This document shows positions 389-41,685 of a stretch of 64,000 nucleotides of DNA, in pieces. Every line of letters starts with the position of its first letter. Position 1 is the stretch's first letter. Made by a program: the position numbers and the translations under genes. This DNA is from Apostichopus japonicus. Taxonomy: Eukaryota; Echinodermata; Holothuroidea; Aspidochirotida; Stichopodidae. Under the pieces are notes generated by a model. The model was not told where the DNA came from and made no database searches. It worked only from the letters and a program-made list of their open reading frames with translations. Where the stretch lies: contig NC_092573.1 in assembly GCF_037975245.1 (NCBI RefSeq), positions 22,411,265 through 22,475,264 on the forward strand, in the 5' to 3' direction.

Positions 389-2223
389 GGAGCAGTTATT
401 GGATACAATCAGATGCCTAAAATCAACTGCTGTGTCTTCCACATTTCTTCAAGAGATTGCGTAACGATGCAAGCTATGAAGCTACTCTCGTCTAACACTG
501 CCCTCTACGGCGTAAAGTCGGTCGAACACAAGTCTCGGCCTCCGGTCGATGACGTTTACAGAATCGATTATCCACTGATGGGTTCCTACCTGCACGCAGA
601 AGGGTAAGTTATAGGCAGGCGCGGCGGAACGGAAAAATTATTGGGGGGGCTAATGTGTGGAGACTATCTAAGCGGAGCGCCACCATCGGTTGGCGCAGAG
701 CGTGCAAGAAAATTTTGGGTTTTTTCAAACCCCCAGATGGCCGGAAACGGCACTTCCCGAGTGTTTTATGCTTCGAATACCTAGCCCTAAAATATGGGTC
801 TCAAGCCTGCAATTTCTCTGATTGCACGTAAAAGTCTGTAAAAACATTGTTATTTGTATATCCGATGGTGTTTTAAGAGAGTAGCTATTACTCGTAGTGT
901 ACTCACAAAGACGTTTTTTGAGTGTAGTAAGGGCAGTGGCGGAGCTAGGGGTATTGGTCGGGGGGGGCAAGAATGGTCTGTAGGGGCACTTACGACACTA
1001 TCTAAGCGGAGAGCCACCACAGGTTGGCGCGGAGCGTACAGAAATTTTTTGAGTAAAGATACTCCCTAGATTGCAGGAAATGACCCTCTCCGGGCCTTGC
1101 TAATTTGCAGATAAACGGAGAATAAATAGGTGTCGTCGCCATTTTGTCGGAAAATTACACCAACAGAATATGACAAATGTCAATAGGTAGATGAGAGCGC
1201 AATAAAATAGTCAATAATCGCGAATAAGTAAAAAGTAGTGAAAAGCTGAAAAGGGCGCCAGCAGTCTATTGGAGAACTGGCTGAAATGAGGCAAGTCATT
1301 GGCCTAAGACGAAGTTGTGTTGAGCTTACCGGTACTCACACTCACTGCTTCCACTTTTCACGGGGCGTGAAGAAGCGGTTGGGGTGACAATGTGGTCTAT
1401 AGCCAGGGGACGGGCCGAGGGTCCCCCAGCATTTACTAAAATTATTACACCTGTATAGTATACGTGTGCATCGGACAGATCGACAAGTATGCATTGAAAA
1501 ATGGGCAGATGCACGTTTCGGAGCCTTGGTAAATATTGGGGGGCTTATCATGCATTTTCCCCCTCAACTTTTTTATTGGGGGGGCTGAGCCCCCCCAATC
1601 CCCCCGGTTCCGCCGCCACCGGTTATAGGATCTGACAGAAATGATACGTATTCAACAAAAAATACCCATATTTTATCACGACTGATAATTAAGCATCCAT
1701 GACTGCTGGGGCCAGGAAGGTCACAGAAATGATTCAAGTGTCACACAGTTACACAGAACCTCCATTTTGGAATGTATGTAACAGAAACCGGATATTTCTA
1801 CTTGAAACCTAAAATTCCTTGTGCAATGATTTATCTGTGTACTAGTTACAAAGCTAATTATGGTTGTGTGCCATATTACAAGCGCAGGTCAGACTACATC
1901 TGGCAATTGACACTTTTTCACTGAAATGCTGCTGTTATTTTTTTATTTGATTTCTTCTTTTTTGTTTTCATCTGGATCCATCAGTCCATCACAAATTACC
2001 CTTTTCTACATTCGTCCCTATTTTAATGTGCGTTTTCCTTTTTGTTTACAGAAATGTGGTCCATGTGGAATCTTATTTTGCGGAGGTGGATCTCGGCGGT
2101 AAAATAGGTAAAATGGGAGCCTGTATGATCATGCACAATTGGGTAAAGGAGACCATCAAATTGGCGAACGAAATTCCTAGTATGCTGGATGTGACAAGCC
2201 CTCCTTATGAACAGTTTCTGTAA
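389..2223 (+). CDS. START-domain lipid-transfer-like protein, C-terminal part (5' end outside window or unseen)
   Basis: Two spliced exons, 389-603 and 2052-2223, ending in TAA at 2221-2223. The acceptor before 389 is a pyrimidine tract plus CAG. The donor at 604 is GTAAGT. The exons join in phase through a shared Gly codon. The product reads as the C-terminal half of a START domain: an RDCV motif, a SVEH strand with following Pro residues, a VYRIDYPL strand, then an EVDLGGKIG turn leading into the amphipathic C-terminal helix. In the family the DxGG turn and last helix close over a hydrophobic lipid cavity. About 128 residues are visible, so the N-terminal half of the domain and the start are missing. 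I could not assign a STARD subfamily. An AATAAA overlaps the stop codon, but no convincing poly(A) site was fixed. The intron is mostly a hAT-like insertion. Confidence 0.72.
616..1621. mobile_element. Non-autonomous hAT-like DNA transposon, 1006 bp, with perfect 8-bp TSD
   Basis: The segment is flanked by identical 8-bp direct repeats GTTATAGG at 608-615 and 1622-1629. Its left end (CAGGCGCGGCGGAAC) and the reverse complement of its right end (CGGTGGCGGCGGAAC) match at 12 of 15 positions. An 8-bp target duplication with CAG-type termini is characteristic of hAT elements. No transposase frame is present, so it would depend on a helper. The left target duplication overlaps the last bases of the START gene 5' splice site. 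Confidence 0.75.
934..1130. repeat. Second, internal 5' end of the same repeat family nested in the hAT-like element
   Basis: At 934 a fresh terminus-like sequence (CAGTGGCGGAGCTAGG) occurs. About 60 bp later comes a box, ACTATCTAAGCGGAG..GCCACCA..GGTTGGCGC, that also appears at 662 and, more diverged, at 19978. The two copies inside one element suggest nesting or a duplicated left end. Confidence 0.45.
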
Positions 2224-5361: not shown

Positions 5362-8300
5362 CTAATTTCCTCTTGAACTCAGAGATGACTGCGATCCCAT
5401 TTTTGCCTTTTGCAAAGAAGAAACCGACCCGGTGCGATCCTCCGATCCACCAGCAGCCGTCTTATCGAGTGATGACGACGAGCCGAGAGGTTTCTTATCC
5501 ACCGATTCCTCGGATAACTCTTTTCGCTTCAGATTCGAGATGGATCCCATGGGATCCTTTGATCCGCTGGGAGCCATCTTATTGAGTGATGACAACGATC
5601 CCAGAGTTTTCTTATCCACTGAGTCTGTGGACGATGCTTTCTTCTTCAGACTGGAAGTGGATCCCATCGTCTCCGACGAGGTCGATGGGTACACCTTGGA
5701 CACGGTGGATCCGTCCATTACGGTGATCCCTTCGTCGGCCATATTCCAGGCGTCTCTGTCCCCAGCATGCTTGCTCACATAGTGGAAGATGTCCCTCAAG
5801 CCCTGCTCTTTCGCTCTCAACCTGTTCAAATAAAATACATCAAAGTCACAAGTTTAACAGGGTTTCATTGAGGCTTTTCACATGAGACACAAACTTATAA
5901 GTCAACCTTGCATTGATACAAGGGTACTTCCATGGTATCCAATGCAGTGTTGGTTATCTTATCTGAGTTGGTATTTGTCAAGGAAGACAAAGAAATGGAT
6001 ATATTAAAGGAATGTTTCTGCTGCTGCAGATGCAGGAAGACAAAGGAAAGAGAGAAACAGTTAATGAATAATTAATTATTAATTAATTATAATGAATTAA
6101 AATTAAATTAAAATTACATTTAAATTAAATTTAAAAAAATTAAATTAAAATTAAAATTATAATTAATTAATGAATATTAAATATACCCTAACACTAAGTT
6201 TAGTAACAGGCTCTTTTGCATTACCGTGATATGAACACCAACTGGTCAATTAACACAGTTCAGGTGATAAGACCACATACTAGCAGTTTAAAATCATAAT
6301 GATCATCATAAAAGAGTTAGCTTTAGGAAGGGTCTGGATATCAATCATAATCTTACTCTGCCCCACTGATCAACTAGTTTGATTGTGTTCTGTGACTGCT
6401 GAAGGTCAAATAATTTTGCCGCATAACATTGTGAAAAAATCCAGAATTCTAAGACCAACATCACTGTGCATGTTCTTACGAGTAAAGTCACATGCATTTC
6501 AAAATCTTGGGAAAAGAGAAATTTCGGCAAAGACATTAGTAATACATTGAAGTCAATTATAAGGTTTCAAAGAAAGTTGAAAGGTTAACTTTCTGTGAAA
6601 GTTTTGACACTATTTGATAACAGGCTGATCGATATGTAGCTAATGTAAATATAAAATGACAAGTAATTTTTCACCTTTACGTACAGTGGCGTCTGCAACA
6701 AATGTTTCATTTTAAAAGACACAAAGGACTTGGAAAACTGGTGGGAGGGGGAAGGGGTGAGTGGGGAAGTTAGCAAAGAAAAGGAAACACAATCTGCTTA
6801 CATAAGGACCTTCTCCTCCAACATACAATGGATGATTTTGCAGACAACTTTCTGGAGAGTAGCATCATCTGTCTTGACAAATCTCATCAGAGTATCTTTC
6901 AGGTTTTCCTTGGCTAACAGCTGGGTACAAGACTGGAATGAAAAAGTGGGAGGATGCCTGACATCAACATAGATTAGATTACAGAAGCACGTACTAAACT
7001 TAAAGGGTGTGAAGACGTGCAAAAAGAAACGTCTAATGCCGGTAATCTGACCTAGTTTTGAATGAGGTGTAACAGAAGTGTTAAACACCACCTCGATCCC
7101 AGAAAAAAACACACACAGCTTGCTACCGTCGGTAATTAGACACTAGTGTACAGTCAGTACATACAGCTGCGGTCAATACCCATAACACAGTATACAAACG
7201 ATACAGCGATGGACATCTCAGGTCCGGCTAAAGATAACAAGGTATCATGTTTCATTACTGTCTGCATTTTGTAGCGACACGAAAAAAAACTTCACCTGCA
7301 AGCAACGGAAAGTTAACTTTTTCAGATGGTCGCACACGTTTTGGGGCGAGTCTTCAATGCCTTTATTCCTAACATGGTAGATGACCCACACTTTGGAGGG
7401 ATAGTACCAGACTACAATCTACATAGCGAAACAGGGTTGCTGCTATATCATTATACATATCAATATGAGTTTGGGTTCCTGATATTGTTTTCGAAACCAG
7501 CCTGAGCAATACCACAAAATATTTTGACAGACAATCATAAACACATGCAATAAACATATTTTACAAGTGAAAACGGAAGAAACTTGATAATGAATCACAT
7601 ATAACAAAGATTTTGCTGACAAAAAATGAAAGTTAGTAAAAGTATCATTTTGCAGGCATCATAAAATGGAGTTGTACTTTGGTCTGAAGTGTTGTTTCTA
7701 TCATTCTGTAAGTTGGTTAAAAAATAGCATGTCAGAAATAAGAAGCTGAGGTCTTATACATGTCTTATTGACACTGAGTAAGTAGTACGAAGGGGGAGGG
7801 CGGGGGGGGGGGAGTTGAATTTGGGTGTGGCTTGACAAATGATACATGGCAATATTAGTTTAGGGGGGAAACAACAATTTTGATATGTTGATTGGGCTTA
7901 TCTCATATCACAACAACCCTTATAGTTAAGTATAGTTAATAATCATGCCACTAAATTGTAAACATTGGGTTTCTGTTGCTCGCTTAGTAACTGTTCAGTT
8001 ACAATTATTGGCCAGGTTAGGAGGAAATTAATACTTACATCAGGGCTTTCTGCAAAATACAGAATAATTTTACCAGCCAGAAGATAGATGCTGGCATCGA
8101 GAGATAGTTTAGTAACATTCAGAAGATGCTCCAACAAATCTTCCTATTTAACATAGAAGAAAAAAAATATAACATAACAAATTTATTTCTTTCATTAGTA
8201 TTTTTTTGCGCTTATGCCCTATGGGTTTCTGCAACGTAAGAAGAAGAAGAAGGATTTCATACATGATAGAAACATTTCAAAACATTCATCGGTTGGTGTA

Positions 8301-11300
8301 CTGTGCAAATAAGACAAAGCATATTATAGACACCTAACTTTACCAAATAATCAAGACAATTGCGACCAAAGAAATTGAAACAAGGCTCACAAAATGCTCT
8401 TATAACATGAGACATGTCAGGTAGTCTATATAGAATGACTTCAACACCATGAGTACCACTACAAGCAGGATTTCCCTTGATAGGGTGCAAGAAGTAGTAG
8501 AATGACTTCAACACTATGGGTATCACTACAAGCAGGGTTTCCCATAATAGGAGTACAAGTAGTAGTAGAATGACTTCATCACCATGTGTACCACTACAAG
8601 CAGGTTTTCCCTTGATAGGAGTATAAGTAATAGTAAAATGACCTAGACACCATGGGTACCACTACAAGCAGGATTTCCCTTAATAGGAGTACAAGTAATA
8701 GTAGAATTACCTCAACACCATGAGTACCACTACAAGCAGGATTTCCCTTAATAGGAGTACAAGTAATAGTAAAATGACCTAGACACCATGCGTACCACTA
8801 CAAGCAGGATTTCCCTTAATAGGAGTACAAGTAATAGTAGAATGACTTCAACACCATGGGTACCACTACAAGCAGGATTTCCCTTAATAGGAGTACAAGT
8901 AGTAGTAGAATGACTTCAACACCATGGGTACCACTACAAGCAGGATTTCCCTTAATAGGAGTACAAGTAATAGTAGAATGACTTCAACACCATGGGTACC
9001 ACTACAAGCAGGATTTCCCTTAATAGGAGTACAAGTAATGGTAGAATGACCTCAACACCATGGGTACCACTACAAGCAGGATTTCCCTTAATAGGAGTAC
9101 AAGTAATGGTAGAATGACCTCAACACCATGGGTACCACTACAAGCAGGATTTCCCTTAATAGGAGTACCAATACTTAAGCCTTGCACAAGTACCTGTTCT
9201 AGATTTCTACAATGCACCGAGTATGAGTACAGAGTGGTGAAGTGTAAGTATAACTACTGGCAGCTATGGTATGACAGGAGTTCCTACTATGGACTTATTA
9301 CATGGATGTTGTCATCAGATGACCCTCCTCACATATCTAAGAGTAAACTCATTTGGGGCTTTTGAGGGCGATGTTAAACCTAATGGTTTTCTGTGAAATT
9401 TACTTACATGGTAAAGGATCACATCTGGACTCTCTATAGCGATAAGCTCCAGGGTCTGTAGAGACAAACGAAGTGTCTCCGGGTCTCCACTGCTGCACAG
9501 AGTCACCAGGGCAGAGGCTAAGGAAGGAAGAAAGAAAACAAAATAAATTACCCGAACGTGAGAAATACTATTTCACTATACAGGTAGGTAGGGAAAATGT
9601 CCATTTTTTTCATGAACTTATTGGCTGACAAACAATGCTTGAGGTATACCTGAGCAAATGCTTGTTAAAAAGCATATTTTTTTATGTCATATTAAGGATG
9701 TGACAAAAGAAGGACAAAAAAAAGAAGAAAAATCATATGACATGATCTATGGACTTTTAAGCAGATGAGATGCAATGGAGAAGAATGTAGTTAACTCTGT
9801 TTGTTTATTGGTTTGTGTCCTTTGTAAACAAACAAACATAGCAGATGAACCAGCAGTAGAGATTTGAAGGCTTAAAGGGTGTGAAGACTCGCGCAAAGAG
9901 AAACGTCTAATGCCGGTAATCTGACCTAGTTTCAAATGAGGTGTAACAGAAGTGTTAGACACCACCATCGATCCCAGAAAATACACACACAGCTTGCTAC
10001 CGTCGGTAATTAGACACTAGTGTACCGTCAGTACATACAGCTGCGGTCAATACCCACAGCACAGTGTACATACGACACAGCCTAAAGATCATGTTTATCA
10101 TGGTATCATGTTTCATTACTGTCTGCATTTTGTAGCGACAAGAGAAAAACTGCACTTGCAAGCTACGGAAAGTTAACTTTTTCACAGGGCGGCATGCAGT
10201 TTGGGGCGAGTCTTCAATGCCTTTAACTATGTTGTATGTTTGTTTGTTTCTGTCCTTTGTAAAAAAAAACCCAAAGCAGATGAACCAGCAGTAGAGATTT
10301 GAAGGCTTAAGAACACAATAAAATATGAACTATCATATATATATAAGTATTAAAATATATGTACACTGTATGAACATGATTGGCAAGTAAGAAGAAATGG
10401 GAAAAAAGGAATAAAATTGCAATGGGTAATGAACCCTCATGAATATTTTACGACTAGGGTTGACCGTAAAGTTAGAGATCAAAAATTTAAAATTACAAAA
10501 TGGTTATTTCTATCATTCTGCTCACTTGGTGAGTTCATGGAGGCCATCTGAGACCTGATTTCTGGACTAAATGCCAAGTCCAGAAAGATGCCCGCGATGC
10601 ACCTCTGTGTGACCTCGGAACCATTCTTGGCCGCGTGAGAGAGGTCTTCCAGACCCCTCTCTGCTGCCACCACTTGCTTATTCTCATCAGAGTCTGCCAC
10701 GATGTAGGAGAGAGCTGTGGCCGCTTCCTGCACGAGTCGTTTGTTTTGCGAGTGGAGGATGGTGGAGAGGGTCGTGACCCCACCGGCCTCTACGAACTGA
10801 TCCTGGATAGAGAATGAACACAGAGCACTTATTAGGTTAATGCATTACATGATGCAACTTTTGAATATATATTTCTGTTTTTTTTATGATGCAACATCAT
10901 ATGATGCAACTTTTGTATATAAATATTTTTTTTGTTTTTGTTTTTTGTACACTAACATTTTAAAATAATATTTTCTTATGACGTACATTTGATGTCCTGC
11001 TTATAAATATTTATATTTATACTGGAAATAAATTAATGAAAATGAAAAAAAAAATGGATGGAAATTTGTCTGTGTTTTGATGCTACAGCTCGCCTGCAAG
11101 ATATTAACAGTTATCGCTATGTATTGGGTAACGTGTACATCTAACTTGTAACACGTTTTAATTTTGATGGAGAGAAGCGACATGTAGCACCTATCTGTAT
11201 CAATATATTTTGCATTCAAAATGCATCATTTAAAATGAAGCGAGTTCATGTGTACTCCGTTATGAAAGACGTTTCTTGAAATGTTAATCCTTAGAGAAAG

Positions 11301-14300
11301 GAACAGAGTTGAAGACATGATTTTAATCATTCCCCGGGTAGGGTTGAAATATTTAGCAAGATAACGTCCAGTCTTACCTGAATTGCAGGCACGGTGAGAA
11401 GTTCTGCCATGGCTTCTGTTGCGTACTCTTGAGTTGACTCATCTCTCGATAGACCCAGAGAGATTAACACTTCTAACCTGTCGGCCGAAAAAAACAAGAA
11501 GAAAACGTGATAATTACAACAACAAAATATGAAAAAGTATCATCAGAATAAGGTGTTTCCCACTTATAGAGTTCAAACTGTTGCAGTTTTCATTTCATGG
11601 GGTCTTATAATGTCAGAGGCATTACAAGCACACAACATGTCAGTGGTCAAGGGACTTCCTAGGTCACAGAACACACCACAATTCAAGCAACTATGACCAT
11701 GAACACTTCACAACCAGTGCAGAACAAATGCATTTTCTTTCTGATACAAATCAATGACAGCACATTTGCTAAATACTGCATCTTTGCACACACGTACATA
11801 TTTTGTCTTGCTGCTTATTCAACCCACAGATTTCATGGCTAGGGGCATGACTTGTTACTGAGCAAATGAGGTATGTTTTGACCCTGACAAATCCTAAATA
11901 TCGATAGGTTGGAGAATAAAAAATATAATAAAAATAAAAACTCACCCTCCCTCTGCAACAATCCTGAATTTGCTGTCATCTCCTGTTGTTGACAATGTGG
12001 CCAGTTCAAATGCTGCTGTTCTCTGTTCTTTAACTCTAAAACAAAAAATGAACATAATTTAATCATGTCCAATTAACATTTGTTTGCCTTCATATATAGG
12101 GAGATGAAATATCAAAACTTTCCAATCATTCAGGACATTGAGCTGTTCCTCAATAAAATGAAGACAAGATGTAGTGCTATTGAACCGAGATGATGAGAGG
12201 ATCATGTACAATAGATGACAGGCTTGTAGTATGAGTAAAACCTACAGAAGAATGAGTTCAATTAGAGTTCCCTTGGTCTGAGTACAAATATGATTACAAG
12301 GCTCTAAGCAAGAGTATATTAGATCCTCCTGCAAGCAGGAACTCGCGAAGAAGCCTCATTGGCTTATCAAAGCCGCTAGCTGACCGAAGTCAGTCTCTTA
12401 CATTCATATTTAACGTCCATGATTATGAATTGTCAATTGTCAACAACTCTGTAACTGGAAAACATACATTAATCTGGGCGTGACTCAAACCGGGGACCTT
12501 ATGATTGAAAGGCACCGGCGTTAACCACTGAGCTAACACTCCAGTACATGTATTCTTACACTATTATCTGTGCTGGATTTCCAAAGAGTACAAGTATAGA
12601 TAACTATGTTAGAATACAAGCACAGACTCCCTATAAGTCTGATAGATGCAAGCACATATAGCACAATACAAGCACAGACTCCCTATAAGTCTGATAGATG
12701 AGAGTGCAACCATTGTGTGGAGACAGGGGAGTGAGTAGTAGCACAGTAAACAATTAAAACAATTTCCACGAATGTTGAGCATATAGAGAATATGATGTTA
12801 TTGTGAATGAGTGTGTTTGTCTTCATTAGGTTTTTGTTCTGCTGTGAAGATTTAAAGTCTCACTATGAACAAAACAGGACTTCCATCTGCTTATATCTTG
12901 ATATAGTTGTTTGAAATTCTGAATGTGTGCATGACAAATCACATCCTTTAATGCAACAATGTTACACCCACACGTATATTCAAATTATTGCAATAGCTGA
13001 AAGCAAAATTAGCAAATGGTAATGGCTATGTCGAGACTAACACATTATGTTTAAGGAAACATAAAGCCACTCTAAGAGTAATAATACTGAATCATATCGC
13101 AATATTTTAATAATCAGCAGTTATTTTTACGACGCTTAAGCGACCACAGATGTGGGAGAAACCCACAAGGGCTTATGGATTACAACTTACACATCTGGTG
13201 GCTTCCAATTCGATATTTTAACTCAAATTTGGAATCTTTTCAATTTAGAATGTCATTTCAGATGGGAAACCGTAGATTGCTCTACGGATGAAAAACCCAC
13301 CTTACTATGACCCGGCCATGGAATCGAACCAGGAACCTCCCGATTGCGAAGCCTCATTGCCTCAAATGCCACCGCCTTTATCCACTTGGCCACAGCACCG
13401 GTATTCAAATATTGATAGGATGTTACATATAACTACAAGCTCCCTCCTTTTGACTCAAATCTTTGTTACAATATTGTCATTCTTTAGCAATTGGATGTTA
13501 TATTTGTTTAGCTGACCTTCATCCAGACTACTACTTCTCTGTTCAATAAATATCAGTCCATTTCAATAATAGTCAATATAACCATATCAGATTCCATATG
13601 TTCATCGGTCCATTGAATAAATCCTGCGTTGCAACAGATTCCAGAAACCTTGGATGGGGTAAAATGAGAAGTAGAGAGGCAGACGGAACTGAGCAAGGAC
13701 TTTGATAAAATGGCGGCTACCAAGAGCTCTGAATACCTTAGAGTGAGAGTGTAGTGGGTAGACAGGGAAGTGAAAAATTACCACAACACAAGATATCAAG
13801 TTTTATATCAAATTCACTACTGAAGACAAAACACAACTTAAAAAGGTCTGCTAGGTGAACTATTTGTTTATATCATTCAGTAGAACGTTCTGTCTGCTTG
13901 AATCTGGCTTCAATCAAGTGCGTACTCACCTGCTCGATCGAGCGGCCTGGATTACCTTCTCTACATCCCGTGTGATGACCAGGTACTTCTCCAGGTAATC
14001 CCCCACGAGGAAGCCAAAGTTTTTCAGGAGGGTCAGAGCAGTTGTGCAGACACCGAATAGGTAGATGGCATGAATCACGAAGAAGACCATGGAGTAGATG
14101 TGGCCAACATACTGAGATGAACAACTATTGGTGGTGGAACTCGCTGTATCTGGATTGTCAACGCAATCGAATTGCTGAACACGAATAAAAAAGAAAATCA
14201 TCACAACATATCGTTATCATTTGAGACTGGGGTTAAGTCTCAAGTTATGGCTGGGTGGCTCAGTTTGTAGAGTGCTTGTGTCCTATCATACTGAGTTCAC

Positions 14301-17300
14301 TAAGGTCAGAGTTTCTCAGTTATCAAGCTTCCTGGCACTGCAACTGACAATACCTACTCCCCCAACCTCTCCATCCCACTCCCACTCATCTCACACACAC
14401 ACCATCTGACTTGAGAGTATGCAGGGAAAAGGAACAATTTCATAAAAGTTATGCATACTACCAACATAAATTAACAGGGAAAGAAAATCATATATATATT
14501 TTTTTTGGGGGGGAAGTGGGGGGTGGGGAATTATCCAACTCACTCACTACTACTCCATTTATCAGATTTAAATAGGCCTACTTACAAAGATGGAGAGAAA
14601 TGACAGAACAGTAAGAGCTACCGTTGCACCCCAGTTCAACAGCAACAACACAGCAAAGATGATCATGAATCGTCTCGGCCTACAAGAGAGAGAGAATCAA
14701 AGATGTGTCACGTTTATTTCTGAAATGATGGTTTCAATTCTGATTTGTACTTCTACTTTCCTAAATGTTGTAAAAAAGTTTTAAACTAAGTTTTTACAAC
14801 TAAAACTGAATTGTCAACATGTAAAATATTGTTTTAAACAGTATCATGGAAGCTTGACAGTGTGGCCTGATAGCAAAGTAACTTACACATGGCTAGGAAA
14901 TAGACCTCAAACTATCAAGAATATTGCTGGTGAGACTACAAGCGAAACAGTAAACATGATATATAGAGGCAGCAGTTTTACTACTAGAGCAAAGTCATTT
15001 CTAATTGCCAAAGGTTAGGATGAACTGAGAAAGAATAACTGACATTATGACACGTATCCTTTTCATTTCACACATGCGCAGCATGATCGCTATTTAATGC
15101 ATCGCATTTAATTCAAGATATTACTCACAATTATTTCTGCAGCTCATTACCTGTTTACAACTTTGCTTTCAAATTTTATCTTTTAAGAAAGGTAAAGCCT
15201 ACTGAATGTTTCAGCGCTTGTATATATACCTGAAATCAAGTAATATGGAAGACTCTAAACGACTTCTTTTGTTCCCTAATCAAAATAAATTCACTCACCA
15301 AAGACTTGAAGTACCGACGAATCCCCCTCTGTGCGTGTAAGTCGGACATCTCAGCACCGCATAGAGCGTGACGATAAAATTCCAGATGCCAGCGTACCAG
15401 TAAGTGGTGAAGAAGGCGAACAGTACAAAGAGCCAGCTGACATATAAAGAACCCTGTAATGAAGAACAAGCCAGGAGATAACTGAAAACAAAAGGTGGTC
15501 AATAAAGTGCCCACTTTCAGCATGGTTCAAATTGCTAGATGTTCTCAAAATAACTTACCACAGTGTTAATATCCTCTGATTCATTCTTAGAAATTAGAGA
15601 GTGTACAATTACACAAGTTAACACCACAGAAAAACAAAAATCTTTGAGTGTGGCAGGAAAAAAAGCTTGTTTAAAGACATTGAAGAATCACCCCAAACCA
15701 TGTGCCGCCATCTGAAAAGTTAACTTTCCGTTGCTTGCAAGTCAAGTTATTTTTGTGTCGCTACAAAGTGCAGACAGTAATGAAACGTGATACCTTGTTA
15801 TCTTTTATCTAGACCTGAGATGTCTATCGCTGCTTTGTACACTGTGTTGTGGGTATTGACCATAGCTGCATGTATTGATTGTGCACTAGTGTCTAATTTA
15901 GCAAGATGTGTGTGAATTATCTGGGATCGATGGTGATGTCTAGCACTTCTGTTACACCTCATTTGAAACTAGGTCAGATTTCCGGCATGAGACGTTTCTT
16001 TGTGCGCGAGTCTTCAATGCCTTTAAGTTTCAACACTAGAGACTTTTATTTGACTTTCTAAGTTTCTAGTATATTTGGTGGTTATAGTTATGACCCTTAA
16101 GGTATGCTGTATTGGCCCCAAATATGCTAGATATTCAAACATGGTCACCTTTGGTCAAAATTCTTGAACCCTTTTTCATACCACCTTCCAGGAAATTTTA
16201 CTCACTTAGACATTCAGTCATGTTGTGTGTTCCTTAAAAATTGTCTGAGAACAATTTGGAGAGTAAAGCCCTCCAGGAAAGTACTTTTTGTAAACTTCTA
16301 GCAATTATAGCGTGCTATAATTTTGGGGCTCATACTGACTACCTTTAAATGGCGTGTAACTTATACACCTTTACCTGCGGATCCCTTTGATATCTGAGTC
16401 AAGCTCCCCCTTCTTAATTGCTATAAGACCTCATGAAGTGTATCTTCTTGAAGAGGTGCAATCGACTAGTAATTGGCATGCAAAATTTCGATAACAATAT
16501 TTACATCAGACCAGATTTATATTTGAAATTAGAGAAGATTAAGGTATATCTCCAATGAATTTCAAAGCATTGTAGGAGGAAGGTTGAGTGCTGATACTGA
16601 TGGGGTACTAACAGAATATTCATTAGGTATAAAGCTATTTTTGATTGTAACACTAATGCACCAATGACAAAGCCTTTGGTCTGATGTACAATTTACCTGA
16701 CCAGAGGCATAATATAATTGCAAACACCACAGGTTTGCTCTGATAAGAAAGACATCTGTCAAGTTAGATGACTGTTTGCAACTCGTTTCACTAAATGGGT
16801 CATGCTGTGTTTGATCTTATCTAACCTTGAAATCTCTGAGGATAGTTTCCCTCCATTTTAAGAGCATCACTTCCTTCAAGAGAGCTTTGGTGATCTCTTC
16901 ACTGTGTCCTGCCCCACCAGCGTCAGGGTCTTGCCTGCCGTCGAGAACGTCCTCTAACTTTACGAAAGACTGTATTGAGAAAGAACAGGAATTAAGTTGA
17001 GCGTCAGAATGTTTCTTTATACGTCTGATAATGGTCCTGATGTCCATTTATTTACAATTTACAATTGAGAACTGTGATCATTTCAATGAACACTAGAGAA
17101 CATGATGTAAGAAGAGTACAGGCATATTAACAAAATGTGTGATTTGAATACAAAAAGAAATTTGAAGTCAATATCTGAACATGGTAAGAGCTTTGGGTTC
17201 AGGACACATGTAGATAATGGCCAAATTATGAAATGGAATAAATTTAAAGTAGTTAATTCACCTCAGAACGCTTTGACATGGGAATCATTTTAACGATGCA

Positions 17301-18553
17301 CCGGTCACCAATTCTGTAGTCATCCAGAGTATATGAATCTCTCAGAAATTGACCTTTGAACCTCAAGCGGAACTGATGGTTTTCCCGTCCCATGTCATAC
17401 AGCAAGTGTAGTAGCTTAGCCCTTACACGGGCCAAAGTTTCTGTTTGGGTGCATTGCACTATAAAGGTGTGCACCTAACGAGGAGAATAAAAGAACATAG
17501 GAATCTCGTAGACAAAAGCATGTAGTTACAGTTAAAACAAATTTAGTAAAAGGTCTAGCCTGGGCTAGCTCTAAACTAAAAGTAGCACTGTTCCACGCAT
17601 AAGCGTTGTGGTCAAGTGGTTAAGGCAGTGGACTTGTGATCTAAGGATTACAGGTTCGAACCCTGGCCAGATCACTGCGTTGTGTCCTTTGGCAAGGCGC
17701 TTTATCTCCATTGCCTCTCTTCACCCAGGTGTATAAATGGGGACCTGCGAGGTAACTTGTAAAATATAGTTGCGTGCGCCGGTTTGTGGCTGCACCCTAT
17801 GGGAAGTCCCCCGGGGACACATGGTTGTGGTGCACTGTGGTGCCCCAGGAGAGATTGGTTGAATTGTGCACACTTTGGTGTGTCAAGTTACCAATGACCA
17901 GGGTTGTAATTTTGTAAGGTGCCATTGAATGTTTGTTTACGTGCAATAATGAGCACCATATAAGTGTTATAATTATTATTATATTATTATTTATCATTTT
18001 CATCCGTTTATTGTAACTGAGCCACCAAACTCCCACCGGAGATTTTTTTTTTTAAATCATTATTTGTCGAACTTACCATTAAATGTTTTTTTTTTGGTTT
18101 TAAAATCATTAGAACACATTTATCCAACGTAAAATATGAGTAACTTAGCAAACTGCCTGAATATCCTGAACGAAAATTGCAGTTTCATACTTTGAATGTA
18201 TCTGTTAAAACTAAATCAGTTAAAGTGTATCCATTCCAAAGTGGCTATTCTTACGACTAGTTGTAAGAATAATTTCCGACTACGCAGTTGCTATTTTCAT
18301 GACCAGGAGTACTATTTTTACGACGAGGAGTAACAATAATTTGCGGTTAGGGTTAGGGTAAGGGTTAGGATTGAGGTTTAGGGTTAGGTTTAGGGTTAGG
18401 GTTACCCCTACTACATGCGCAGTTGCTTTATTTACTTTACTGCACTTGAATTTGCCTTTGTCGTAAGAATAGTTTATAAATAATTGTTACGACTCGTCGT
18501 AAGAATAGCCACGGCCTATACATTCTGCAACGGCTCCTTACCAAATCCGTCAT
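5362..18553 (-). CDS. Ubiquitin-like / multi-pass membrane / armadillo-repeat protein, 711 aa, 13 coding exons
   Basis: Coding exons, from the start: 18542-18553, 17262-17474, 16826-16969, 15299-15453, 14586-14679, 13930-14174, 11946-12035, 11378-11477, 10526-10802, 9408-9517, 8039-8143, 6802-6932, 5362-5821. Every junction has AG/GT and keeps phase (2136 nt). Residues about 5-72 form a ubiquitin-like fold: FKGQFLRDSYTLDDYRIGD aligns with the K48-side loop and strand of ubiquitin, with no Gly-Gly tail. Hydrophobic segments lie at about 126-157, 178-206 and 229-268. Residues about 289-558 are alpha-helical armadillo-like repeats (EQRTAAFELATL, EYATEAMAELL, LVQEAATALSYIV). The last exon ends in Ser-rich 39-residue repeats. 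I do not recognise a named family. A role as a membrane-anchored scaffold is inference only. The start ATG is in a 4-codon first exon, so the true start is less sure than the rest. Confidence 0.82.
5365..5667 (-). repeat. Coding 117-bp tandem repeat (39-residue units) in the UBL/ARM gene tail
   Basis: Residues 611-649 and 650-688 are two 39-residue copies, each with GSxSxLK(K/R)K, then SVDKK, then LGSxSSLxK. A shortened third copy (689-711) follows. DNA units are 5551-5667, 5434-5550 and 5365-5433. The tail is rich in Ser, Lys and Gly and predicted disordered by composition. Confidence 0.85.
6060..6182. repeat. AT-rich cryptic simple repeat
   Basis: A run made almost only of AATTAAATT-type words, in the last intron of the minus-strand UBL/ARM gene. 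Confidence 0.7.
7000..7366 (+). mobile_element. MITE with TTAA-type ends, copy 1
   Basis: Begins TTAAAGGGTGTGAAGAC and ends GAGTCTTCAATGCCTTTA, whose reverse complement matches the start, giving terminal inverted repeats. About 360 bp long with no reading frame. Copies at 9872-10226 (same orientation) and 15671-16026 (inverted) share the interior. The right TTAA is mutated to TTAT here. It lies in an intron of the UBL/ARM gene. Confidence 0.7.
8425..9171. repeat. 68-bp minisatellite, about 11 copies
   Basis: The word ACTACAAGCAG recurs at about 8458, 8527, 8593, 8661, 8729, 8797, 8865, 8933, 9001, 9069 and 9137, so the period is 66-70 bp on the left and settles at exactly 68 bp. Rightmost copies are nearly identical, and the left edge is more diverged. 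It lies in the intron between UBL/ARM exons 9408-9517 and 8039-8143. Confidence 0.92.
9791..9875. repeat. TTAA-bounded 85-bp unit, left copy flanking MITE copy 2
   Basis: Starts and ends with TTAA and shares most of its length with 10223-10310, including GTCCTTTGTAAA and GCAGATGAACCAGCAGTAGA. The two copies sit directly on each side of the TTAA-type MITE. Confidence 0.7.
9872..10226 (+). mobile_element. MITE with TTAA target duplication, copy 2
   Basis: TTAA at both ends (9872-9875 and 10223-10226). Terminal inverted repeats read TTAAAGG..GAAGACTCGC. The interior matches the copies at 7000 and 15671. A TTAA target site is typical of piggyBac-like and Kolobok-like elements. Superfamily is not determined. 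Confidence 0.75.
10223..10310. repeat. TTAA-bounded 88-bp unit, right copy flanking MITE copy 2
   Basis: Partner of 9791-9875, in the same orientation, and it also ends in TTAA (10307-10310). Confidence 0.7.
12310..12546 (-). mobile_element. tRNA-derived SINE, minus strand
   Basis: On the minus strand, starting near 12546, an A-box-like TTAGCTCAGTGGTTAACGCC is followed by a B-box-like GGTTTGAGTC (about 12492-12501). A non-tRNA body reaches to about 12310. It is too diverged and too poor in stems for a functional tRNA. It lies in a UBL/ARM intron. Confidence 0.6.
12613..12701. repeat. Short direct duplication
   Basis: A 39-bp segment starting CAAGCACAGACTCCCTATAAG occurs twice, about 50 bp apart, ending each time in GTCTGATAGATG. 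Confidence 0.8.
13120..13402 (-). mobile_element. tRNA-derived SINE, second family, minus strand
   Basis: Reading the minus strand from 13402: GTGGCCAAGTGGATAAAGG (A-box-like), then GGTTCGATTCC (B box, about 13314-13324), then a unique body to about 13120. The anticodon region is longer than in a normal tRNA, so this is a SINE rather than a tRNA gene. Confidence 0.6.
14238..14310 (+). mobile_element. Possible decayed tRNA-like SINE head
   Basis: GGCTGGGTGGCTCAGTTTGT resembles a tRNA 5' half with A box. The B-box position is degenerate. A C-rich run follows. Confidence 0.3.
15671..16026 (-). mobile_element. MITE with TTAA target duplication, copy 3 (inverted)
   Basis: TTAA at 15671-15674 and 16023-16026. 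Sequence is the reverse complement of the copies at 7000 and 9872, with shared blocks such as AGTTAACTTTCCGTTGCTTGC. It lies in a UBL/ARM intron. Confidence 0.75.
17601..17995 (+). mobile_element. tRNA-derived SINE with ATT-rich tail
   Basis: The tRNA-like head has A box TGGTCAAGTGG (17609-17619) and B box GGTTCGAACCC (17653-17663), with a TGT triplet at the anticodon position inside a 4-bp stem. A body with CTTTGGCAAGGCGCTTTAT and GGTGTATAAATGGG follows, then a 3' tail of ATT repeats (about 17969-17995). This body style is common in SINEs of marine invertebrates. It lies in intron 1 of the UBL/ARM gene. Confidence 0.8.
18241..18512. mobile_element. Small TIR element with telomere-like TTAGGG core
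   Basis: Left end GTGGCTATTCTTACGAC (18241-18257) is the exact reverse complement of the right end at 18496-18512, and similarity continues inward for about 10 bp. The interior holds a degenerate TTAGGG run. No obvious target duplication was seen. It ends about 30 bp from exon 1 of the UBL/ARM gene. Confidence 0.75.
18345..18405 (+). repeat. Interstitial telomere-like (TTAGGG)n tract
   Basis: About ten units of TTAGGG and variants (GTAAGGG, TTTAGGG, TTAGGA) in 60 bp, enclosed by the terminal inverted repeats above. Confidence 0.85.
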
Positions 18554-19897
18554 GGTCTTCTTCTTACACCAAGGCTGACCAGACAGAGGGGGTTTTGTGA
18601 ATGATGAAACAAGGATCAATATTTGTTGTAGCGAGATCAAACGTTAGGCTGAACGTTGGTCTTTACGGTATACATAGTCTACAGCAGTCCTACCATTAAG
18701 TGCCATGGGTCCTAGCCTAGGCCTACTCACTCCACAGCAATAGCACTAAGTTACTAACGTTCGGTAAAGCCTACATTTGTTTATTGTTGGAGGTCTTACC
18801 ACAAATGCACTGCTTTCAATATACAACAACATTTTTAATATTGTTGTGTGCACATCTTCGCAATTTCTTGTCAACCAGATCAAGCTGACGGATTTGAAAT
18901 GGTTCTTCAATGTCAATTTCGCGGAGTTATTGTACACTATCCACGAACGCTTTCATGAGCCTATGCTATGGTTGTAGTGTTTACATACGCTTACGCGTCT
19001 GCATGACGTAATGATAGTCCAGGTAACGTTGACGTCACTGAATTCTGCGTTTTAACAACCTACACTGTACGTACCGTCTATCCTTTGCTGCGAGTAGTCT
19101 GGGCTGGGCCTTATACTGACCCCTGAAAGTTTCCCCAATCATGCTTAATTCAGAGTGTAATGCTTCAATTAGATTTTAACTTTTGTTCAGACTTCAACAC
19201 AAGGAGTCTATATTAACACATTGCATAAATGTCCGGGAACACTGGGCCGCGGCCCAAACACCATTTTCGTTATGGGGTGGGGGTTGGGAGGGGTTAAGAT
19301 GCTATATACTTGGTTCTGTGTGAGATTTCTATGAGGATGGCTTACCCTCTCCTTTGGAGTTTTTGTACATATGGAGGGTGCCTGGATGTAAAACGGTGCT
19401 TTTCTTGACAACTTTCGTACAGTGACAGAATTTTAAACTGTGTGGGCTGTACCGTACATGCACGCTACAAATTTATGTATTGTATGGTAGGAATTATATT
19501 TTTTATAGCCTGTCAGTGGAGAGGGGGGGGGGGGGAATGGGCTGATCCCCCTCTTCGTGGGAGAGGGATAAAGAACAACCTTAAATTATACATGGTTGCA
19601 TATCTGGGAATTTTTTTATTAAGATCTATACAGAAGTAGGGGCAACTTAGGAATTTTATCAAGCACTGACTTGTTAGTCTTTATATGCTAAGTTTGGTTG
19701 CTAATGATGCCTTTGAGGCCACTTATAGCAAAGTATTGTACAACTGAATAGCCTATCTTTTCCAACATATTAAGCTTTAACCTTCTGTTCCAAGATGCCA
19801 AATAACAGCACACAAGGATCAACACAAATTAACTTTACATTCTCAAATAAACTAGTTCAAGTGATACTGATTAGTACTTGTATAAAATCATTTTAAC

Positions 19898-20217
19898 CAG
19901 GCGCATAGCCAGAAATTTGCCAAGGGAGGGGCGAACCTGTAGGCAAACTATCAGAGCCGTAGATTCGGCATTGCAAACTATCTAAACGTAGTGCCACCAT
20001 GAGTTGGCGCTATGCATACAAGAAAATTTTGGCTGAAAATGCCTCCCAGATCGCTGGAAATGGCATTTCCCAGGCCTTGTAAGTTGCATCTACGCTTGAA
20101 ATTACTAGCGATATCATAAAAACACAAAACAAAAATTATGCTCAAGGGGGGCTGTTGCCCCCTTTGCCCCCCCCCCGGCTAAGGGGGCAACAGCCCCCCC
20201 CCCCGGCTAGGCGCCTG
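19898..20217. mobile_element. Short hAT-like non-autonomous element, about 320 bp
   Basis: Left end CAGGCGCATAGCC matches the inverted right end GGCTAGGCGCCTG with one mismatch in 13. Flanks ATTTTAAC and ATTTCAAT agree at 6 of 8 positions, compatible with an aged 8-bp target duplication. The interior carries the same ACTATCTAAACG..GCCACCA..GTTGGCGC box as the element at 616. Confidence 0.65.
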
Positions 20218-23200
20218 ATTTCAATATTTAAAACCAGAAAACAAAATCGTTTAGTGGTTATGATGCCTAAACACATTCATAGTGTGGTAAGCCATACATG
20301 TTAATATACATGAACTTGTGCACACCAAAACTAAGAGGATTATCTATTGACTAATGCGGCAACAAATAAAGAAAGGTATCAGGGATCAGTTATCATGTTG
20401 ACAAAGCATCAACCATTTAATTCACTGGTAAGGACTACAGTATAGAATTTTTATTCCAATTCCTATGTGAAATAAACCGTAGACACATAGATTGTATGGA
20501 TGAAAGGAAATTTGGTGTTGCCAAGTTTTGAGTTTGCAAATCCCTTTAAGATTTGTTGTTATAGATTGAGAGCTCTACATGACATTGTTTGAAATACACT
20601 GTAAAATATTTTGACAACCTACAAGTCATCTGGTACAAATTGCCAATTTTTGGCAAATTAAAATAACTTTTTGACACCTTGAAGCTCGGAGGGTGAACTG
20701 GATAATGGCCAAAGACTTGAGGATCCCACACAAATATAGATGGAATATACTTGTACACTGAACTAAGTGAAGTCTAGAGCAGAAATAACTATGAACAAGG
20801 TTTTAATTTACACCCTCTTATATTTGTTTAAACCCAACAGAAAAAGGATACTTTGTAACAGACAAAACAGAAAAAAACAGTACAGGGATAGCTGTAAACA
20901 CTACCAATAAAATCAACATAGGTAATTAATATCGTTAAGAAATCACTGTTAAATAATCTGGGAAATACTAATTAGGAATAAATAAAGTGCACCTGTAAAA
21001 TTCTAAATTAACATCTCTTGCTACTTACTTGTCACAATCATATTTATCCTGACAACTACATCTTGAAAAAACAAAGAGGTCTTTAAAAACATTGTAAGCT
21101 TTATTTATATGTTACAAAATGGTGTTGTGAGATATCAAATACTGGTAAACTTCCACAAATAGTTATACAGTATAATAGAAACTACAGATTCACTAATATC
21201 CTCTCCCTCTTTTATTTTCTTTTGCTTAAAAGTCTGACCCCATGATACTATTTGGAGAAGCATGTTGAAATACTTCTGCTGTAGTTTGTAACATACAAGG
21301 AAAAGGGTTGTGGTGGGAGTTTAAAGTTTCAAACCCACCCTTTCATCTAGCATTGTCTTGTACAAACAGATTTTTGTTGTTGTTCCAACCAATCTGGAAT
21401 GTTTGCCCAGAACCTCAACCTCATTTCCTCTTAAACAAACAAACCTAAAAGGTTTCATATAAAATGTTTCCCTCACACATTCCAAGTGCTCTACTCCTGT
21501 TCAGTAGACCAAATCCCAAATGTTTTTTACTTGACCCTATTAAAAGAAAAGTTCTTCTTGGTATTAAGTGAACTTGCCATAGAAACTTGAGCCCTGTATC
21601 CATCTGCTTCATAAACAAACTATCATATACATTGTTACATCATTGCTATTTACCATAGTAAGGAACTTGTTTTATGAATCAACAAATTATAAATGCTTTT
21701 AAAGATGAAAAATAGAAAATGAAAGCATTGAAAAGTAAGTTGTTGTCAACTCTTTTGCCATTAGTTTCAGCTTCGACTTAAAATCTCTTCATCTGATTCC
21801 TTTCAATCTACCGAGTTATCTTAAGCCGTCGATGATGGGAAATAACGAGGAAACCGAGAAAAAAAAGAAAGAAAAATACTGCTTAATCATCAAAGAGATT
21901 GGTTATGGAATAATATTAAGAAACAAGAAAGAAAAAAAAAATGCTCAAACAGTTTTCCAATAATCAAAATAGTTCCATCTTGAAAAAGTCTTGTTATGGT
22001 ACAGCAATTGACAGATGAAATGAATAGAAAAATAGAACTTAACCATCAAGATCGTGACAGCAACTCGTAAGATTACCGACTAGAACGGAAACTTGGCAGT
22101 TAAAAAGACAACTTTTGATGCAAACCCCCCCTCCCCCCCAAAAAAAAAAACAGACAACAAAGAGGCTGATGTTCTCCTAAAAATTATCTCTGGCTGACAA
22201 GATTTTAACACCAAGAGAGGATGAAAACCTCCACTGTTCTAACTTTTATTTGAATTTATTATTACCTGTTTATCCCAAATGTCATTCAAAGCAGCCAAGC
22301 TCTTTTCAAGAACTATCCAGCATACTTTGTCTACGAGACGACGTCAAATAGCATCTACAATTTCCAGAATGCATTTGCAGAAATTGGGATATATTTCTGT
22401 TGTCTTAAAAATAGTGAATCTAACCATTAGGTACTTCTAAGACCATAAATAGTTCTAAGATAACTGAAAAAGTCAACCATAATGACAAAAAGGCACAAAC
22501 CCCATCCTTTCTCAGATCAAAGTCTAGTTTAACAGAAAGCTTCATGCAAACAGTTATATATTAGGAGAAAATCTGCCATCTGCAATTCCTATCTGTTCTA
22601 CCGCAAAGGTTAGCATTCTTCTGCGATCGTACTTTAGACCCACTAATTAAAAAAAATCATTTACACCCACTCAACACGTAGCCCCAAAGTCAAAACTCTA
22701 AAGTAATAATATCATTTACAACGAAACCAAAAATCATCGACGGTACATTTCTCTTGTATAGCAATCAATATCTTTTCAATTCTGATTTGAGCCACTTTTG
22801 ACAATTGACCAACTTCATTTTCACAGTTTTTACCTTTGTGAACATCTATGGTTAAATTTAAATACTTTTTAAATCGCACGGTAAGCAAGAAAATTCTTGA
22901 TTCCTCTGTACATTCAATTCTGTTTTAATTACTATGCACACCTTTCCATAACATCCATAACAGATGCAGAGAGCAAATATGGAAGTGAATAATAACTTAC
23001 TAACAATTTTGCTTACTTTAGAAATTTATGTGAGATGCTCTCTAGCAGTATAAAGCTTTTTTTTAATAAAGATAATGAAAACATAAGGAACACCCGCTAA
23101 AATCGATAATCAAAGAGGTTATCTTCACATGCTGCATTTCAGAGTTTATAAAGTTATACACCTTGTTGCCTGGTGGACATGGTGAATCCATAATTGCCAT

Positions 23201-23439
23201 ATAAGCCTTACATTTCACTGGAATTGTCCTGTCCCTCCAGTAAATTGCCTTTCACTGTCAATGTCGCTGACATGGTAACATGTCATAATTTGTACATTTT
23301 CATGATTGCAAATCATTAGCTTGGCTAAGTTTGTTTACCAGAGAAAGAAAGAATTGCAAAATAGCCACATTATCAATCCCCCTTTGAAGTGATAATTAGA
23401 CCAACAGATTTGATTCTGTGTTTGTGTGAACACAATGCA

Positions 23440-24615
23440 AACTAAGTGTCTGATCATAAACTAAGTGTCTGATCATAAAACTAAGTGTCTGATCATAAAC
23501 AAAGTGTCTGATCATAAAACTAAGTGTCTGATCATAAAACTAAGTGTCTGATCATCAGTTTATCGTCGGATCATAAAACTTAGTGTCTGATCATAAAACT
23601 AAGTGTCTGATCATCAATTTATCGTTGGATCATAAAACTTAGTGTCTGATCATAAAACTAAGTGTCTGATCATGAACTAATTGTCTGATCATAAAACTAA
23701 TGGTCTGATCATAAACTAAGTGTCTGATCATAAAACTAAGTGTCTGATCATAAAACTAAGTGTCTGATCATGAATTTATGGTCTGATCATAAAACTTATC
23801 ATAAAAATAAGTGTCTGATCATCAATTTATCGTCGGATCATATAACTTAGTGTCTGATCATAAAACTAAGTGTCTGATCATGAACTAATTGTCTGATCAT
23901 AAAACTAAGTGTCTGATCATAAAACTAAGTGTCTGATCATCAATTTATGGTCTGATCATAAAACTTAGTGTCTGATCATAAAACTAAGTGTCTGATCATG
24001 AACTAATTGTCTGATCATAAAACTAAGTGTCTGATCATAAAACTAAGTGTCTGATCATCAATTTATGGTCTGATCATAAAACTTAGTGTCTGATCATAAA
24101 ACTAAGTGTCTGATCATCAATTTATCGTCGGATCATAAAACTAAGTGTCTGATCATAAACTAAGTGTCTGATCATCAATTTATGGTCTGATCATAAAACT
24201 TTGTGTCTGATCATAAAACTAAGTGTCTGATCATAAAACTAAGTGTCGGATCATCAATTTATGGTCTGATCATAAAACTTAGTGTCTGATCATAAAACTA
24301 AGTGTCTGATCATAAAACTAAGTGTCTGATCATAAAACTAAGTGTCTGATCATAAAACTAAGTGTCTGATCATCAATTTATCGTCGGATCATAAAACTTA
24401 GTGTCTGATCATAAAACTAAGTGTCTGATCATCAATTTATCGTCTGATCATAAAACTAAGTGTCTGATCATAAAACTAAGTGTCTGATCATGAACTAAGT
24501 GTCTGATCATAAACTAAGTGTCTGATCATAAAACTAAGTGTATGATCATCAATTTATTGTCTGTTCATAAAACTTAGTGTCTGATCATAAAACTAAGTGT
24601 CTGATCATAAAACTA
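23440..24615. repeat. 20-bp satellite/minisatellite with TGATCA in each unit, about 55-60 copies
   Basis: Basic unit AACTAAGTGTCTGATCATAA. Variants (ATCAATTTATCGTCGGATCA, GAACTAATTGTCTGATCAT) recur at intervals of several units, giving a higher-order pattern. The region has no spacers and no reading frame of note. Confidence 0.93.
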
Positions 24616-27600: not shown

Positions 27601-27930
27601 TAGGACCAAAACCCAGAACCCACCAACTGAAATAGAAAGCACTTATTTGCTTTCGCCGAAGTTGCCCTTTATTTTAATCATGTATTTTTTCGTGTGTTGA
27701 TAAAATCACCACCGACAACGAAAATATTATACTGGAGAAAAGTACTCTAAGTTAAAACCTTCAATCCATGGCCACAGCAACAGTGTACGTAAAGTACTAC
27801 ATTTCCTCTTCAAGACTATAGCACATACCCTCCAAACAACTGCCGATATCCAGCTAATTGAAAGTCGTTGACAAGGCTACCCAAAGTGTGTTTTTTCTCT
27901 TTTTGTAAACCGATGGTTTGGCAAGATTTT

Positions 27931-28229
27931 CCCATTGACTTAGTGTGGTGTTAGGCTACCATGTGGTCAAAGATAGCAGTAAAAATGAGTATTACATGGA
28001 TATCTTAGTTCCAGCTAACTGCATCACAATTTCAGTGAATAAATAGGTGGTTAGGCTAGATTTCCCTATTGAATTAGTGTGATGTTAGGCTACCATGCGG
28101 TTGAAGATAGCAGCAATAAAGAAAGTATTCGGTGAATGTTTTTAGTGCCAGATAACTGCAACACAATTTGAGCGAATATACAGGGCTAGATTTCCATGTT
28201 GACCTATTTTGATGTTAGGCTACCATGTG
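27931..28229. repeat. Tandem repeat of about 130 bp, 2-3 copies, third copy split by an insertion
   Basis: The block GTGTTAGGCTACCATGTGGT recurs with variation at about 27945 and 28078, and its left half at 28212. The third copy stops at CCATGTG (28229) and resumes after the transposon with CATGTGGTCGGAG at 28954. Confidence 0.7.
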
Positions 28230-28953
28230 CAGGGATGTAAGTGCAGCCAAAAAAAAAAACCGGAAAACTATTCGGAGACCCCAGGTGAATGCCGTCCTAA
28301 CACATCCTACTCCTAGCTCTGACTACTTACACACTATCGTTATGTTAGGCTAGCTCAGAAGTATTAGCGCTAGCACATCTTACCCCTAGTTCTTACTACT
28401 TACACACTATCGTTATGTTAGGCTAGCTCAAAGTTACGAATACGTCGCAGCGAACTACGGAATAAAAAACAGTTTCACATTCGAATGCGATCACAAATAT
28501 CGACTTTCATATGCGTATCCCGTAGATTTCCGCTGCTCACAAATATCACAAGCGTTAATTATGTAAAGTTATGTCGAGCACCAGCAGTTACGAAGATATT
28601 AATTAGCAGTACAATCAACGTGAATTAGGCAAGGTTTTTCAACGACAGAAATGAGCTATGGCGATTTGAAGTTCGCACGTACGCAACGATATTCACATGG
28701 CACAATGTTGTACAGTGCAATGCGATGATGCGAAACAGGAATTGTATTTTGATTGATCGATGAGTGAAAGTTGAAGTTAGCTTGCTGCAACGGGCCAGGC
28801 ATTTTTGCCGCGTTGTGTCTTTGATATTCGAACAATTTTGTGGAACTTTATTGGAATTAAAAAAAAACCGGATTTCCATAAAAATACGGAAGACTTACAT
28901 CCCTGAAAAAAAAAACCGTATTTCCGTAAAAATACGGAAGACTTACATTCCTG
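28230..28953. mobile_element. Non-autonomous DNA transposon, 724 bp, 6-bp TSD CATGTG
   Basis: Left end CAGGGATGTAAGT and right end ACTTACATTCCTG are inverted with one mismatch. CATGTG occurs at 28224-28229 and again at 28954-28959. The neighbouring tandem copies show the uninterrupted target. The right end is duplicated (a copy ending at about 28906 and the true end at 28953), and an internal duplication of about 74 bp lies at 28301-28435. No transposase frame. Confidence 0.75.

Positions 28954-29916: not shown

Positions 29917-41685
<11,769 letters not shown>

What the first reader, a model, noticed from the sequence alone, without database searches (positions are those of the whole stretch)
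5362..18553. Unrecognised UBL + membrane + armadillo protein architecture
Thirteen exons join perfectly in phase into 711 aa with an N-terminal ubiquitin-like fold, three hydrophobic blocks and then armadillo-like repeats. I know separate membrane-UBL and armadillo families, but not this combination. It could be a lineage-restricted or overlooked membrane scaffold, with the UBL and armadillo ends on chosen sides of the membrane.
Basis: partly seen in the sequence, partly recalled or inferred. Interest (0 to 1): 0.7.

Follow-up and report, generated by a model that had tools for sequence, protein, structure and literature searches.

The report
Membrane ubiquitin-like armadillo scaffold gene
One intron-rich gene appears to encode a membrane protein with a ubiquitin-like front end and an armadillo-repeat back end, a combination I could not match to a named family with the limited databases available, and which is probably a membrane-held docking scaffold.

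Summary
The observation largely holds. On the minus strand 13 exons (18553-5362) join in phase through 12 GT-AG introns into 711 aa plus stop. Pfam finds Arm (47.3 bits, cut-off 20.6) and ubiquitin (24.8 bits whole protein, just under its 25.4 cut-off; 28.3 for the N-terminal 123 aa). Between them lie three hydrophobic blocks with no Pfam or PDB sequence relative. The joins rest on splice sites and phase; no transcript was available.

Another phase-0 start, 18832-18800, offers a beta-1-like strand and lies in a CpG-rich stretch. I prefer that 718-aa model provisionally; family searches do not decide between starts.

Best reading: a membrane-held ARM scaffold with a UBL docking arm, working like Vac8. 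Topology is unresolved: a strict three-pass count puts UBL and ARM on opposite sides. None of the titles and abstract openings listed by ten paper searches describes the combination, but no eukaryotic protein database could be searched and the own-genome search did not complete, so 'lineage-restricted' and 'unrecognised' remain untested.

The parts
18800..18832 (-). Preferred first coding exon, MLLYIESSAFV, phase-0 donor; would supply UBL strand beta-1
   Evidence: one of 3 phase-0 ATG-to-donor candidates in 17475-30000, donor score 4.1; M, L, I fall opposite ubiquitin M1, I3, V5 in the alignment; 5 of 17 mini-exons of 8-14 aa in the window share the hydrophobic pattern, so weak alone; Pfam gains nothing from it
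18542..18553 (-).
   Evidence: phase-0 donor, score 3.9; leaves the UBL without beta-1
18800..19099 (.). Possible promoter region: CpG-rich stretch with a CRE-like TGACGTCA at 19030-19037
   Evidence: CpG o/e 1.28 against 0.49 for the window, but 18200-18499 has 1.09 and 28400-28699 has 1.9 in the same scan; the 8-mer is not beyond chance (2 found, 0.75 expected)
17262..17474 (-). Exon 2: UBL beta-2 to beta-5
   Evidence: Pfam PF00240; PDB ubiquitin matches; predicted E-H-E-E-E-E at mean pLDDT 59.8
16826..16969 (-). Exon 3: charged linker before the membrane block
   Evidence: splice chain
15299..15453 (-). Exon 4: first hydrophobic block (about 35 residues)
14586..14679 (-). Exon 5: second hydrophobic block
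13930..14174 (-). Exon 6: acidic two-Cys loop, third hydrophobic block, start of the ARM-like region
   Evidence: PDB ARM alignments begin at residue 275 of the 711-aa product, inside this exon; the first repeat window alone is not significant
11946..12035 (-). Exon 7: ARM region
11378..11477 (-). Exon 8: ARM region
10526..10802 (-). Exon 9: ARM region, holds the best Arm stretch
   Evidence: five helices predicted from this exon alone, mean pLDDT 56.7
9408..9517 (-). Exon 10: ARM region
   Evidence: repeat window 438-479 scores 19, above the 95% shuffle level of 16 but below the largest shuffle, 33
8039..8143 (-). Exon 11: probably degenerate ARM-like helices
   Evidence: no significant repeat score
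6802..6932 (-). Exon 12: probably degenerate ARM-like helices
   Evidence: no significant repeat score; weak Pfam UNC45-central, 15.0 bits, cut-off 25
5362..5821 (-). Exon 13: end of the helical region, Ser/Lys-rich tail with six GSxSxL motifs, stop
   Evidence: motif count; 117-base tandem repeat, 1.8 copies, 5455-5667

Best explanation
A membrane-held armadillo scaffold. The hydrophobic blocks (residues about 131-263 of the 718-aa model) fix the protein in a membrane. The ARM solenoid follows the last block, faces the cytosol and binds peptide clients in its groove. The N-terminal UBL, which has no Gly-Gly end and so is not a conjugatable modifier, is a second docking arm for a UBL-binding partner. 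The Ser/Lys-rich tail with six GSxSxL motifs is a phosphorylation-controlled switch. It would work like Vac8 (an ARM scaffold on a membrane) joined to a HERP/TMUB-like membrane UBL. Shown: in-phase exon chain, UBL and ARM homology, hydrophobic blocks. Inferred: transcription as one mRNA, membrane insertion, sidedness, partners, phosphorylation. Most likely both ends are cytosolic, which needs the long first block to be a hairpin or re-entrant.
For: In-phase 13-exon chain; Arm 47.3 bits and ubiquitin 28.3 bits for the N-terminal 123 aa; best PDB match that I take to be natural is Vac8, 5.6e-10 over 286-472 (one higher row, 5mfm_C, is labelled importin alpha but belongs to a designed-ARM entry); UBL matches ubiquitin chains; exon 2 alone predicted E-H-E-E-E-E, the beta-grasp order without beta-1; repeat windows spaced 41-42 residues at 271, 313, 354, 396, 438, of which 313, 354 and 438 pass the 95% shuffle level; loop between blocks 2 and 3 has 0 K/R, 3 D/E and two Cys, while residues 264-300 have 8 K/R and 5 D/E, which mildly favours a cytosolic ARM end by the positive-inside rule (recalled).
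Against: Whole-protein ubiquitin score just below the cut-off. Only one repeat window exceeds the largest of 200 shuffles, and those at 271 and 396 and from 480 on do not pass. A strict three-pass count with the ARM end inside puts the UBL outside; the second half of block 1 is a poor helix alone (+0.73 at best). Ubiquitin's I44 is opposite Arg, against classical UBL-receptor binding (the role of I44 is recalled). Both folds are of low confidence. No homologue, transcript or localisation evidence.
Confidence: 0.55

Rival explanations
1. An ERAD-type adaptor: the UBL recruits degradation machinery at the ER, as proposed for TMUB1, and the ARM region selects clients.
For: UBL beside membrane segments; TMUB1/2 sit in an RNF185-membralin ERAD complex, HERPUD1 is an HRD1 cofactor, and a cited title calls TMUB1 an escortase for p97 extraction (PMC12765900, passages seen).
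Against: I44 equivalent is Arg; the membrane block matches no Pfam or PDB sequence; ER targeting was not tested.
Confidence: 0.2
2. A true three-pass protein with the UBL on the non-cytosolic side and the ARM domain in the cytosol, acting as a transmembrane linker or receptor.
For: Three segments on the recalled insertion scale; charge pattern of the two loops.
Against: A UBL outside the cytosol would be very unusual (recalled); the last 30 residues before block 1 carry 6 K/R and 5 D/E, so their charge decides little. A signal peptide was not tested for.
Confidence: 0.15
3. Two genes, or two products, read as one: a short UBL product (exons 1-2 or 1-3) and a separate membrane-ARM gene.
For: The UBL join depends only on phase-0 splice sites between exons 2, 3 and 4; exon 2 read past its donor meets a stop after two codons, so a UBL-only product by intron retention is possible; no homologue shows the parts together.
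Against: Consensus sites with every phase matching. I did not search for a separate start for the membrane-ARM part.
Confidence: 0.08

Closest known systems
Vac8 (yeast vacuolar armadillo protein)
   Same: ARM scaffold held on a membrane (function recalled); best PDB sequence match that I take to be natural, 5.6e-10
   Different: Vac8 is lipid-anchored, without UBL or transmembrane blocks (recalled)
TMUB1/TMUB2 and HERPUD1 (membrane UBL proteins of ERAD; PMC12765900, passages)
   Same: UBL together with membrane segments
   Different: no ARM repeats (recalled); the membrane block here matches nothing in Pfam or PDB; their sequences were not compared directly
ARMC10/ARMCX/ARMC12 (membrane-anchored ARM proteins of animals; recalled)
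   Same: membrane-anchored ARM proteins (recalled)
   Different: single N-terminal anchor and no UBL (recalled); Pfam Arm_2 only 12.9 bits for the ARM part, cut-off 20.4

Membership tests
Armadillo-repeat proteins (PF00514) | Arm repeats above the Pfam cut-off | tested here: met
   47.3 bits against 20.6, two stretches
Armadillo-repeat proteins (PF00514) | tandem repeats of about 42 residues along the whole region | tested here: inconclusive
   windows at 271, 313, 354, 396, 438 in 41-42 residue steps; 3 of those 5 pass the 95% shuffle level, none after 480
Ubiquitin-like domain (PF00240) | ubiquitin profile above cut-off | tested here: inconclusive
   28.3 bits for the N-terminal 123 aa, 24.8 for the whole protein, cut-off 25.4
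Ubiquitin-like domain (PF00240) | complete beta-grasp including beta-1 | tested here: inconclusive
   beta-2 to beta-5 predicted from exon 2 at pLDDT 59.8; beta-1 only with the alternative exon 1, and only 1 of the 60 PDB rows shown begins before residue 9 of that model
Conjugatable ubiquitin-like modifier | Gly-Gly after beta-5 | tested here: not met
   the alignment ends in MIPMSKRSE
TMUB/HERP membrane UBL proteins | sequence match across the membrane block | tested here: inconclusive
   no Pfam or PDB hit of the block; TMUB/HERP sequences were not compared directly
Vac8 family | N-terminal acylation, no transmembrane segments (recalled) | tested here: not met
   candidate N termini MLLY, MTDL, MILK lack Gly at position 2; three hydrophobic blocks

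The most novel reading that the evidence does not exclude
An uncharacterised family of animal membrane proteins in which a UBL and an ARM solenoid are joined through a polytopic anchor, forming a two-armed membrane docking hub, absent from the well-studied model animals and therefore overlooked.
Probability: 0.4. Interest if true: 0.55.

Novelty: new variant of a known kind. Interest (0 to 1): 0.42.

Why it matters
If the architecture is real and conserved, it joins two well-known docking modules through a membrane, giving a new adaptor to test in protein quality control, membrane contact sites or signalling. If the family is missing from vertebrates and flies (untested), that would explain why it has no name.

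Tried and rejected
Set aside: a two-gene break at the membrane/ARM boundary; exon 6 holds block 3 and the residue (275 of the 711-aa product) where PDB ARM alignments begin, though the first repeat window is not significant alone. Doubted: MTDL as the start. The third candidate, MILKPKKKHLM at 18109-18077, has the best donor score (6.5) and the highest ubiquitin score by 0.3 bits (28.6 against 28.3 for the other two), so the start stays open. The beta-1-like pattern is common (5 of 17 mini-exons), and CpG-rich patches as strong or stronger exist elsewhere in the stretch scanned (28400-28699, o/e 1.9).

Led nowhere: genome contigs (18 pattern matches, 0 confirmed) and viral contigs (5 pattern matches, 0 confirmed), both queried with the N-terminal 294 aa of the 718-aa model only, in collections of prokaryotes and viruses; NCBIfam with 585 of the 711 aa (one chance-level hit, 12.7 bits, cut-off 287); tRNA scan (0 genes). 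Paper searches, all ten used: no papers held the terms; listings were seen (15 of 41; 2 of 2; 3 of 4; 3 of 3; 2 of 2; 10 of 19). I judged these by title and abstract opening; only PMC12765900 was opened, for passages.

Full report
Gene. The minus strand carries 13 exons from 18553 to 5362. All 12 introns are GT-AG, all joins are in phase, and the product is 711 aa plus a TAG stop. With the alternative first exon the product is 718 aa. tblastn of the 718-aa product against the window returns 13 pieces, its own 13 exons, and no second copy at E up to 1. The exons were selected to be open, so the open-frame probability is not evidence; the domain matches and the agreement of sites and phases are.

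Domains. Pfam gives Arm at 47.3 bits (cut-off 20.6), ARMC9_ARM at 27.9 (cut-off 27.3) and, for the whole 711 aa, ubiquitin at 24.8, just below 25.4; the N-terminal 123 residues alone score 28.3. ARM_ARMC5 (28.4, cut-off 79.9) and ELMO_ARM (20.5, cut-off 27) stay below their cut-offs. The PDB search (best 60 of 111 rows shown) finds designed ARM proteins (to 3e-29, summed over repeats), Vac8 (5.6e-10), plakoglobin (1.2e-4) and beta-catenin (2.1e-4), the ARM matches starting at residue 275 of the 711-aa product or later. The UBL alone finds ubiquitin (best 60 of 271 rows shown): the small E-values are sums over polyubiquitin, and single-domain chains in the rows shown run from 0.0011 (a ubiquitin variant) to 0.089. 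Only 1 of those 60 rows begins before residue 9, so the search does not support the proposed beta-1.

Repeats. Numbering of the 718-aa model. Against one recalled designed module, windows at 271, 313, 354, 396 and 438 are spaced 41-42 residues. Scores are 8, 30, 46, 2 and 19; the 95% level of 200 shuffles is 16 and the largest shuffle 33. So three pass the 95% level and one the maximum. Windows at 489, 520 and 558 score below zero. The back half is degenerate or merely helical.

Folds. Exon 2 alone gave E-H-E-E-E-E, the beta-grasp order without its first strand, at mean pLDDT 59.8. Exon 9 alone gave five helices at 56.7. Both are single-sequence models of low confidence. No fold search was answered.

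Start. With MTDL the ubiquitin match begins at profile position 10 and beta-1 is missing. In 17475-30000 three ATG-to-phase-0-donor mini-exons pass my donor score. The one at 18832-18800 places M, L and I opposite ubiquitin M1, I3 and V5, with a two-residue longer hairpin. It lies in a CpG-rich stretch, 18800-19099, o/e 1.28 against 0.49 for the window; 18200-18699 (0.94-1.09) and 28400-28699 (1.9) are CpG-rich too. If transcription starts upstream, this ATG precedes MTDL, although a short out-of-frame ATG lies a little further upstream (18855, read). The pattern is common, 5 of 17, and Pfam does not separate the three starts (28.3, 28.3, 28.6). I prefer the 718-aa model without claiming it.

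Membrane block. Segments 131-153, 182-204 and 241-263 score -1.29, -0.97 and -0.27 on a recalled scale applied to about the first 312 residues. Kyte-Doolittle agrees, and also shows one window at 493-511 in the ARM region. The block has no Pfam match at E up to 5 and no PDB match at E up to 10. The loop after segment 2 has 0 K/R, 3 D/E and two Cys; loop 166-184 has 2 K/R and 0 D/E; residues 264-300 have 8 K/R and 5 D/E; the last 30 residues before segment 1 have 6 K/R and 5 D/E. This mildly favours a cytosolic ARM end. A strict three-pass count then puts the UBL outside, unless block 1, about 35 hydrophobic residues, is a hairpin; its second half is a poor segment alone (+0.73 at best). Topology is open, and no signal peptide test was made.

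Tail. The last exon holds a 117-base tandem repeat of 1.8 copies and six GSxSxL motifs, a possible phosphorylation cluster (inference).

Surroundings. The next gene recognised on the same strand is GOLPH3 (GPP34, 74.1 and 64.1 bits for two ORFs). The eight other ORFs given to that call had no Pfam match at E up to 0.01. The species was not identified.

Known or new. Vac8, the membrane UBL proteins TMUB1/2 and HERPUD1 (PMC12765900, passages) and the membrane ARMC proteins each share one half; that none has both is recalled. None of the titles and abstract openings listed by ten searches describes the combination. This is a weak negative: the phrases were narrow, most subscription papers are missing, unnamed database entries would not appear, and no eukaryotic proteome could be searched.

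Verdict. A coherent and unusual gene architecture made of ordinary parts, probably a membrane-held ARM scaffold with a UBL docking arm. Interest is moderate because conservation and expression are unknown.

Noticed in passing
30243-30722 and 39722-40021, minus strand: Two ORFs matching GOLPH3 (GPP34), about 9 kb apart.
   Followed up: partly
6996-7365, 9871-10226, 15666-16045: Three copies of a roughly 370-base interspersed element (84% and 81% identical to the third), all within introns of this gene; the third is inverted relative to the other two.
   Followed up: partly
8431-9168: Tandem array of a 68-base unit, 10.9 copies, in an intron of the gene.
   Followed up: no
23439-24615: Tandem array of a 20-base unit, 60.3 copies.
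   Followed up: no
17600-17740: Stretch that looks by eye like a tRNA-derived SINE; ARAGORN (bacterial code) found no tRNA and blastn found no second copy in the window.
   Followed up: partly
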